Positions 13,608-14,836 of a stretch of 34,362 bases of DNA are shown here, piece by piece (the first letter of the stretch is position 1; each line of letters begins with the position of its first letter). The stretch is from an uncultured Eubacterium sp. (GTDB taxonomy: Bacteria; Bacillota; Clostridia; Lachnospirales; Lachnospiraceae). Where the stretch lies: contig CANDJR010000004.1 of NCBI GenBank assembly GCA_947385105.1, positions 1-34,362 of the forward strand, in the 5' to 3' direction. Under the pieces are notes generated by a model that had not been told where the DNA came from, searched no databases, and saw only the letters and a program-made list of their open reading frames with translations. The position numbers were made by a program, and so were the translations under genes.

Positions 13608-13641
13608 AAAAACTCTACACGAATTCGTGTAGAGTTTTTTT
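13608..13641 (+). terminator. Strong rho-independent terminator after the NlpC/P60 gene
   Basis: A perfect palindrome: AAAAACTCTACACG and its complement meet at an AATT centre, and the 3' side ends in a run of seven T. Because A- and T-runs flank both sides it could stop transcription in either direction, insulating the DnaA-box region that follows. Confidence 0.93.
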
Positions 13642-13723
13642 GTATGAAAGTAATAAATGTAAAATTGACGTAAAATTTTTATCCTGCATTTTGCCTGCAA
13701 AAAATAAAAAAAGGAAACTATAC

Positions 13724-13931
13724 AAAATAACCAAAAGTAACCAAAAGTTATACTCTTTTCGACAAGTTTCGCTAAAATAACCAAAAGATAACCGAAAGTT
13801 ATCCACATCGAAAAATGTCGATAAACCGAAAAAATTGAGTTATACACGGACTTATCCACGTTATCCACAAAATTTCGTGTGGAAAAGGGCGTGGATATCC
13901 ACGGGGAAGTCGGAACATCCGTTTTGTATAA
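13724..13931. promoter_or_regulatory. Cluster of DnaA boxes with direct repeats (origin-like or DnaA-titrating locus)
   Basis: Exact TTATCCACA boxes lie at 13799-13807 and 13861-13869 (+). One-mismatch boxes are TTATACACG (13840-13848, +), TTATCCACG (13852-13860, +, directly abutting the next box), TTTTCCACA (13878-13886, -) and TTATACAAA (13923-13931, -). A palindromic GTGGATATCCAC centre with ATATCCACG on both strands covers 13890-13903. Upstream, AAAATAACCAAAAG begins two related 30-base direct repeats at 13724 and 13774, exactly 50 bases apart, each ending in GTTAT. A Spo0A-type box (TTGTCGAA, minus strand, 13758-13765) and a weaker one (TGTCGAT, 13816-13822) lie among them. The rest of 13642-14095 has no credible gene. 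Confidence 0.7.
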
Positions 13932-14095
13932 CATTCATAAACTTAAGGTCTTACCAAAATAAATAGTAAAATCTATTGACATTTCAATAGTGAAATAAGT
14001 AAATACAAAGGGCCTAAGAAGTCGAATTTCTTTTACAATTTTGTAATAATTTGAATTCTAGCATGGCATAATTACAAAAGACATACGGTCTATGC

Positions 14096-14124
14096 TTGCC
14101 AAACGAAAAAGTTTTTGTTATACT
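14096..14124 (+). promoter_or_regulatory. Promoter of the WecG-like/YitT pair
   Basis: TTGCCA (14096-14101) and TATACT (14119-14124) are 17 bases apart; transcription would begin near 14131, about 28 bases before the chosen start codon. It lies about 165 bases past the last DnaA box. Confidence 0.7.
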
Positions 14125-14158: not shown

Positions 14159-14836
14159 ATGGTGAAGAAAATCCGGCTGCTTGGAATGGAGCTTGATAAT
14201 TTTTCTTTGCGGGAAGAAGTCCTGCAAGGAGAAAGTTTTTATAAGAAAACAGAATTAAATGTAATTCGTACAATATCTATGAAAATGCTGAGTGATGCCG
14301 CAGATAACCAGCTTGTACGTGATGGACTTGCACAGGCGGATCTGTTAGTAGTATGCGACAAGGAAATATTAACAGAGGCAGGCATATATTCCAGCCAGCG
14401 GCTGCGTGAGGCAGCTGCACATGGATTTATGCAGGAATATTTTAAACGCATGAGCAGCAATCAGCGCCGTATCTTCCTGGTGGCGCCAACGAGCGAGGCA
14501 ATGCACAATCTGCAGGAATATTTAGTAACAACGTATGAAAATATGCAGCTTGTGGGAAACTATGTATTAGAAGCGTGCGATGGGGAATATGATATTATGG
14601 TCAATGAAATAAATGCAGCGCTGCCGGACGTTATTGTGTCAGTAGTGGAATCTCCGCAGGAAGACATTATTTTGCAGGAGGTCAAAGCTAAAATTGACGC
14701 AAGGGTATGGTATTCCTTGGGCAGCAGATACTTTGATCCAGACGGAAAGCTGTCATTTATCATGTGGTTTCAGCAGCTGATTCACAAAGGACGATTTAAA
14801 AACGTTGTCCACAATTATGACGATGAGAAAGAGTAG
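14159..14836 (+). CDS. Divergent WecG/TagA/CpsF-type glycosyltransferase-like protein
   Basis: 225 residues. The core resembles the WecG/TagA/CpsF family: RRIFLVAPTSEAMHNLQEYL followed by MQLVGNYVLE, then INAALPDVIVSVVESPQEDI and a VWYSLGSRYFDPDG segment, matching the family's order of nucleotide-sugar fold elements. The usual DGxG substrate loop near the N-terminus is replaced by LVVCDKEILTEAG, so activity is doubtful and it may be a non-enzymatic relative. A GTG at 14147 could also start the frame, but the ATG at 14159 is better placed after AGTGGGG. It lies 8 bases before the YitT-family gene. Role unknown. Confidence 0.65.
   Translation: MVKKIRLLGMELDNFSLREEVLQGESFYKKTELNVIRTISMKMLSDAADNQLVRDGLAQADLLVVCDKEILTEAGIYSSQRLREAAAHGFMQEYFKRMSSNQRRIFLVAPTSEAMHNLQEYLVTTYENMQLVGNYVLEACDGEYDIMVNEINAALPDVIVSVVESPQEDIILQEVKAKIDARVWYSLGSRYFDPDGKLSFIMWFQQLIHKGRFKNVVHNYDDEKE

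What the first reader, a model, noticed from the sequence alone, without database searches (positions are those of the whole stretch)
13724..13931. DnaA-box cluster with direct repeats far from dnaA
Two exact TTATCCACA boxes and four one-mismatch boxes lie within 133 bases. One pair is directly abutting (13852-13869), and there is a palindromic GTGGATATCCAC. The cluster follows two 30-base direct repeats spaced exactly 50 bases. It sits in a coding-free interval of about 500 bases insulated by a strong terminator, and no replication gene is near. It could be a DnaA-titrating or DnaA-reactivating locus, a DnaA-regulated promoter for the WecG-like gene, or an origin moved away from dnaA.
Basis: partly seen in the sequence, partly recalled or inferred. 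Interest (0 to 1): 0.72.

Follow-up and report, generated by a model that had tools for sequence, protein, structure and literature searches.

The report
Conserved DnaA-binding locus outside the origin
A short stretch of non-coding DNA in a Clostridia bacterium carries a precisely spaced row of binding sites for the replication-starter protein DnaA; the same layout is kept across most of its family and beyond, away from the real origin, so it is probably a conserved control site for the timing of chromosome replication.

Summary
The DnaA-box cluster is real and far above chance. The genome's own oriC lies elsewhere, around dnaA on another contig, so this is not a moved origin. The cluster is a conserved element: a profile of it hits 350 of 396 family genomes (224 of 245 genera), and weaker relatives occur in other families and orders of the class. 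Its fixed layout, from 187 distinct copies, is: box1, 32 bp, box2, 3 bp, box3 directly abutting box4, then RAACRNNYGTTTTGT 49-52 bp on, then an inverted repeat TTGAC...GTCAA about 105 bp on. Neighbours vary: the next gene is most often hpf (ribosome hibernation factor), in the window's lineage wecG, and in several loci a convergent gene although the layout is intact. In 13 complete genomes where hpf is elsewhere, the element lies a median 2.1% of the genome from dnaA, hpf about 30%. Best explanation: a chromosomal DnaA-binding control locus acting in trans (titration or datA/DARS-like), probably ancestrally the hpf upstream region. The wecG-promoter and displaced-origin readings are not supported. 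DnaA binding and function are inferred, not shown.

The parts
13799..13807 (+). DnaA box 1, TTATCCACA (exact)
   Evidence: in 153 of 187 elements box 1 lies 41 (+-1) bp before box 2 start to start
13840..13848 (+). DnaA box 2, TTATACACG (fits TTATNCAC)
   Evidence: TTATACAC columns 89-100% conserved in 187 elements
13852..13860 (+). DnaA box 3, TTATCCACG, 3 bp after box 2
13861..13869 (+). DnaA box 4, TTATCCACA, directly abutting box 3
   Evidence: most of its columns 98-100% conserved
13816..13824 (-). accessory one-mismatch box TTATCGACA, not part of the conserved layout
13878..13886 (-). accessory one-mismatch box TTTTCCACA, reverse orientation, position variable in relatives
13913..13926 (+). 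conserved motif GAACATCCGTTTTG (family RAACRNNYGTTTTGT; in other Clostridia the palindrome CACAAAACAnnTGTTTTGTG); binder unknown
   Evidence: 123 of 187 at 49-52 bp after box 4, against 3 and 12 of 187 with GTTTTG anywhere in control windows
13976..13995 (+). conserved inverted repeat TTGACATTTCAATAGTGAAA (family TTGACATTT..AA..GTCAAA); operator-like or a -35-like sequence
   Evidence: TTGAC[A/T] in the 100-109 bp bin after box 4 in 107 of 187
13724..13802 (+). two imperfect direct repeats upstream of and running into box 1; species-specific
   Evidence: absent in the same-genus relative
13608..13639 (.). terminator-like perfect inverted repeat after the NlpC/P60 gene
12144..13544 (+). SH3-NlpC/P60 secreted-protein gene, the upstream neighbour most often kept in the family
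14096..14124 (+). sigma-A-like promoter TTGCCA-17-TATACT (TG before the second hexamer), probably of wecG
   Evidence: 1 found, 2.8 expected in shuffles; position relative to the gene is the argument
14159..14836 (+). WecG/TagA-like gene (ATG start), downstream neighbour in this lineage only

Best explanation
The stretch about 13799-13995 is a conserved chromosomal DnaA-binding control locus outside oriC. SHOWN: four co-directional boxes in fixed geometry (box1, 32 bp, box2, 3 bp, box3 abutting box4), followed at fixed distance by two operator-like motifs; kept in about 90% of family genomes and in recognisable form in other families and orders of the class, while genes on either side change. 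SHOWN: it lies in the origin-proximal part of the chromosome and normally reads with the leading strand. INFERRED: DnaA binds it cooperatively as a multimer on the box array, helped or controlled by one or two other DNA-binding proteins at the flanking motifs. INFERRED: because it is duplicated soon after initiation, the extra copy removes DnaA from oriC (titration, as for the oriC-proximal DnaA-box clusters of Bacillus subtilis) or changes the DnaA nucleotide state (as E. coli datA or DARS), which limits re-initiation. Ancestrally it sat just upstream of hpf, so a cis effect on hpf may exist in lineages that keep that order; in the window's lineage the element stayed behind NlpC/P60 and hpf is on another contig.
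For: Chance excluded. Profile R1 hits 350/396 family genomes, 224/245 genera; pattern in at least 119 named contigs, nearly all Lachnospiraceae; same layout in other families/orders of the class. 187 distinct copies show the fixed geometry, equally with hpf, wecG, cdaR or other genes downstream. Convergent real genes next to intact elements (ATP synthase D, NlpC/P60, DUF1846). 24/26 family and 17/18 order/class copies lie within a quarter genome of dnaA; 23/26 and 17/18 on the leading strand. Where hpf is separated (13 genomes) the element lies a median 0.021 genome from dnaA, hpf 0.296; element closer in 11/13. Own hpf is on C37 without a box cluster. No conserved RNA structure. DnaA-box clusters outside oriC limit initiation in B. 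subtilis (PMC5295017), are noted as analogous to datA (PMC5742627), and DnaA prefers closely spaced box pairs in E. coli (PMC11317965).
Against: No binding or phenotype data. Adjacency to hpf is kept in about half of the family loci and in 10 of 14 class-level loci read, which a purely trans role does not need. Origin proximity is confounded by shared ancestry (several of the genomes belong to one genus pair) and by the position of hpf itself. B. subtilis clusters were reported to have a strong effect only when all six were deleted. Several class-level profile scores are weak (30-45 bits), and some could be other box clusters.
Confidence: 0.55

Rival explanations
1. It is a DnaA-controlled promoter region of hpf, linking replication state to ribosome hibernation; in the window's lineage a rearrangement put wecG in place of hpf and the element is now a leftover or rewired promoter.
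For: hpf is the next gene in 59 of 99 named loci, in 104 of 223 loci tabulated and in 10 of 14 class-level loci, in several orders; downstream gene on the same strand in 87 of 92 hpf loci; fixed distance to a TTGAC sequence.
Against: Half of 26 complete family genomes have hpf 0.2-1.6 Mb away and still keep the element; own hpf has no box cluster upstream; the non-hpf copies keep the motifs at least as well (26/28 wecG and 13/13 other NlpC loci against 54/96 hpf loci have TTGAC at the site); some intact copies face a convergent gene; TTGAC lies in an inverted repeat without a conserved -10 hexamer.
Confidence: 0.25
2. DnaA-regulated promoter of the WecG-like gene.
For: wecG is next, same strand, in the window and in about 30 relatives.
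Against: Limited to one lineage; identical layout without wecG; a separate sigma-A-like promoter lies just before wecG.
Confidence: 0.05
3. Secondary or relocated replication origin, or a relic of one.
For: Tandem co-directional boxes as in origins; in one Clostridia MAG (L051) the same 30-bp pattern lies between dnaA and dnaN.
Against: dnaA with box clusters on both sides is on C48; genes and skew keep one sign across the window; in complete genome G407 skew flips at dnaA and not at the element 781 kb away; sequence right after box 4 is not conserved, so no conserved unwinding element or DnaA-trio.
Confidence: 0.04
4. Conserved non-coding RNA or leader whose sequence only resembles DnaA boxes.
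For: Conserved intergenic element near gene starts.
Against: No Rfam match over threshold, no consensus structure or covariation; conservation concentrates in four 9-mers matching the DnaA box.
Confidence: 0.03

Closest known systems
oriC-proximal DnaA-box clusters (DBCs) of Bacillus subtilis (Okumura et al. 2012; read through PMC5295017 and PMC5742627)
   Same: Clusters of DnaA boxes outside oriC, origin-proximal, in a Firmicute; proposed to hold DnaA away from oriC.
   Different: Here a single well-defined element with fixed geometry and extra motifs conserved over a family and recognisable in the class; sequence homology to any B. subtilis DBC was not tested, and the B. subtilis in vitro DnaA map does not mention yvyD (hpf) (PMC4447404).
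E. coli datA
   Same: Intergenic DnaA-box cluster with a site for another protein at fixed spacing; closer to oriC than to the terminus.
   Different: datA uses an IHF site and a different box arrangement (boxes 7, 2, 3 minimal; PMC5742627); no IHF site was found or sought here, the auxiliary motifs are different.
E. coli DARS1/DARS2
   Same: Core of three DnaA boxes with fixed spacing plus, in DARS2, distal protein sites at conserved spacing.
   Different: DARS box I is opposite to boxes II and III (PMC5742627); here all four conserved boxes point the same way. DARS2 lies far from oriC, this element lies near it.
Bipartite clostridial oriC (PMC7561715)
   Same: Runs of co-directional TTATCCACA boxes.
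   Different: Not at dnaA, no DnaA-trio/unwinding element conserved, no skew switch.

Membership tests
non-oriC DnaA-box cluster (DBC / titration-type locus) | several high-affinity DnaA boxes clustered away from dnaA/oriC | tested here: met
   dnaA and oriC boxes on C48
non-oriC DnaA-box cluster (DBC / titration-type locus) | origin-proximal position | tested here: met
   in relatives: 24/26 and 17/18 within 0.25 genome of dnaA; own draft genome cannot be placed
non-oriC DnaA-box cluster (DBC / titration-type locus) | DnaA binds it in vivo and its removal advances initiation | not testable with these tools
   needs ChIP/DAP-seq and deletion
datA | datA box arrangement with an IHF-binding site, stimulates hydrolysis of DnaA-ATP | tested here: inconclusive
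   box arrangement differs from the description in PMC5742627; IHF site and ATP hydrolysis not tested
DARS | core boxes with box I opposite to boxes II and III | tested here: not met
   four conserved boxes co-directional in 187 copies against PMC5742627
chromosomal oriC | GC-skew minimum/sign switch at the locus | tested here: not met
chromosomal oriC | DnaA boxes next to a conserved unwinding element / DnaA-trio | tested here: not met
   columns after box 4 are not conserved (28-55% for the first ten)
DnaA-regulated promoter | constant downstream gene in the transcribed direction | tested here: not met
   downstream gene varies and can be convergent; hpf in about half of loci

The most novel reading that the evidence does not exclude
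A Clostridia-wide DnaA control element, distinct from datA, DARS and the B. subtilis clusters, built of four co-directional boxes plus two operator-like palindromes bound by unknown factors, which couples DnaA availability (or nucleotide state) to replication timing and, in the ancestral gene order, to ribosome hibernation through hpf.
Probability: 0.35. Interest if true: 0.85.

Novelty: new variant of a known kind. Interest (0 to 1): 0.7.

Why it matters
How Gram-positive anaerobes keep initiation to once per cycle is poorly known; the review read here states that DnaA-box clusters with a significant role had not been identified in B. subtilis, unlike E. coli (PMC5295017). A single, sharply defined element in most Lachnospiraceae, dominant gut bacteria, would give a directly deletable site, and its two constant companion motifs point to unknown partner proteins. 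The recurring link with hpf would connect replication control with ribosome hibernation.

Tried and rejected
Moved origin: rejected (dnaA with its own boxes on C48; skew). wecG promoter: rejected as the general role. Structured RNA: Rfam and RNAalifold negative. The direct repeats and GTGGATATCCAC as essential parts: not conserved. LexA site for RAACRNNYGTTTTGT: half-site GAAC partly fits the Gram-positive SOS box known to me, but the C is only 73% and the right half is GTTTTGT, so not accepted. TTGAC as a -35: no conserved -10, lies in an inverted repeat. Spo0A boxes (TGTCGAA): 25 of 187 upstream and 29 of 187 downstream, no stronger than that, not accepted. Literature searches for DnaA boxes in Lachnospiraceae, or DnaA with hpf, found nothing relevant in the open-access library; Okumura 2012 itself is not held.

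Full report
OBSERVATION. Two are exact TTATCCACA; with 13852 they form the abutting pair 13852-13869. Five boxes with at most one mismatch lie in 90 bp, against a maximum of 2 in 60 Markov simulations of the whole window and in 3000 simulations of the intergenic stretch. The direct repeats exist but are imperfect, and neither they nor the palindrome GTGGATATCCAC is kept in the same-genus relative.

NOT THE ORIGIN. The genome has one strong dnaA match, on contig C48, with exact boxes upstream (7729, 7757, 7769, 7838) and downstream (9507, 9532) of it, the bipartite layout described for clostridia (PMC7561715). In the window, skew and gene direction keep one sign on both sides of the cluster. 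In the complete relative G407 the skew changes sign at dnaA (2.017 Mb) and is about -0.2 on both sides of the element (1.236 Mb).

A CONSERVED ELEMENT. Nucleotide search with the intergenic stretch in 100 family genomes gave 45 hits, most of them at window positions around 13795-13872. A profile without structure (R1) matched 350 of 396 family genomes and 224 of 245 genera at E <= 0.001. A 30-base pattern found at least 119 contigs of named genomes, nearly all Lachnospiraceae such as Butyrivibrio, Roseburia, Acetatifactor, Agathobacter, Blautia, Anaerostipes and Eubacterium plexicaudatum. That the window is from Lachnospiraceae is an inference from these relatives. Weaker but well-aligned copies occur in other families and orders.

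ANATOMY. In 187 distinct copies: box 2 TTATACAC, 3 bp, box 3 TTATCCACA, box 4 TTATCCACA abutting, with most columns 97-100% conserved; box 1 begins 40-42 bp before box 2 in 153 copies; RAACRNNYGTTTTGT 49-52 bp after box 4 in 123 copies; TTGAC[A/T] in the 100-109 bp bin in 107 copies, as the left arm of TTGACATTT..AA..GTCAAA. In other Clostridia the first motif is the longer palindrome CACAAAACAnnTGTTTTGTG. No RNA structure was found. The bases just after box 4 are not conserved, so there is no conserved unwinding element there.

NEIGHBOURS. The next gene is long-form hpf in 59 of 99 named loci, WecG/TagA in 12, the rest scattered. Upstream, an SH3-NlpC/P60 gene is commonest (35 of 81). Outside the family hpf is again next in 10 of 14 loci, in others Cas6, a peptidase, solute-binding proteins, histidinol dehydrogenase and so on. 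The motifs are as well kept without hpf as with it. In several loci with the intact layout the next gene is convergent and real by Pfam: ATP synthase D four times, NlpC/P60, DUF1846. The window's own hpf is on C37 without a box cluster. So the element does not depend on any one downstream gene.

POSITION. Among 26 complete family genomes, 24 elements lie within a quarter genome of dnaA and 23 read with the leading strand; among 18 order/class copies, 17 and 17. In 13 of the 26, hpf is next to the element; in the other 13 it is 0.2-1.6 Mb away. In these the element lies a median 0.021 genome lengths from dnaA and hpf 0.296; the element is closer in 11 of 13. The p-values (0.001 paired, 0.0006 between groups) ignore shared ancestry; two genus pairs are among the 13.

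MECHANISM. Shown: conserved box array, constant companion motifs, changing neighbours, origin-proximal placement. Established elsewhere: box clusters outside oriC restrain initiation in B. subtilis (PMC5295017, PMC5742627); datA and DARS modulate the DnaA nucleotide state in E. coli with additional proteins at fixed spacing (PMC4585315, PMC5742627); E. coli DnaA boxes are enriched near oriC, and titration is supported (PMC12371093); E. coli DnaA prefers box pairs 2-3 bp apart (PMC11317965). Inferred: DnaA multimers form on boxes 1-4; early duplication of the locus lowers free or active DnaA after initiation. Whether this is passive titration or an active change of nucleotide state cannot be decided from sequence. 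The co-directional boxes speak against a DARS core, in which box I is opposite.

RIVALS. The most serious is a DnaA-controlled hpf promoter; it explains the class-wide adjacency but not retention, with full layout and closer to dnaA, after separation. Both could be true in lineages with the ancestral order. The wecG promoter has a better candidate at 14096-14124.

VERDICT. Real, conserved and to my knowledge undescribed in this form; the open-access literature searched has no mention. It is a new variant of a known kind, the non-origin DnaA-box locus, with function inferred.

Noticed in passing
own genome G000:C96:10414-10431 (L233 about 3915): A tandem TTATCCACATTATCCACA lies between murC and a two-gene operon that looks like dnaD and a dnaC/dnaI-type helicase loader (by eye from the translations), suggesting DnaA control of helicase-loader expression.
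   Followed up: partly
own genome G000:C62:1023-1082 (L234): Three exact TTATCCACA on the minus strand within 60 bp, upstream of a small lipoprotein-like gene beside nad-type genes; a possible further DnaA site.
   Followed up: no
window 13913-13926 and relatives: RAACRNNYGTTTTGT at a fixed distance from the boxes, a full palindrome CACAAAACAnnTGTTTTGTG in other Clostridia; its binding protein is unknown.
   Followed up: partly
upstream of box 1 in relatives: TGCACAAA occurs in the 200 bp upstream in 101 of 187 copies (3 downstream); the window has TATACAAAA at 13719 instead.
   Followed up: no
L051: A Clostridia MAG has the 30-bp box pattern between dnaA and dnaN, i.e. in its presumed oriC2.
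   Followed up: no
L069, L076 (Paenibacillus), L104 (labelled Anaerolineaceae MAG): Pattern hits outside Lachnospirales; the L104 contig has NlpC, the element, then prfB as in Lachnospiraceae and is probably misbinned.
   Followed up: no
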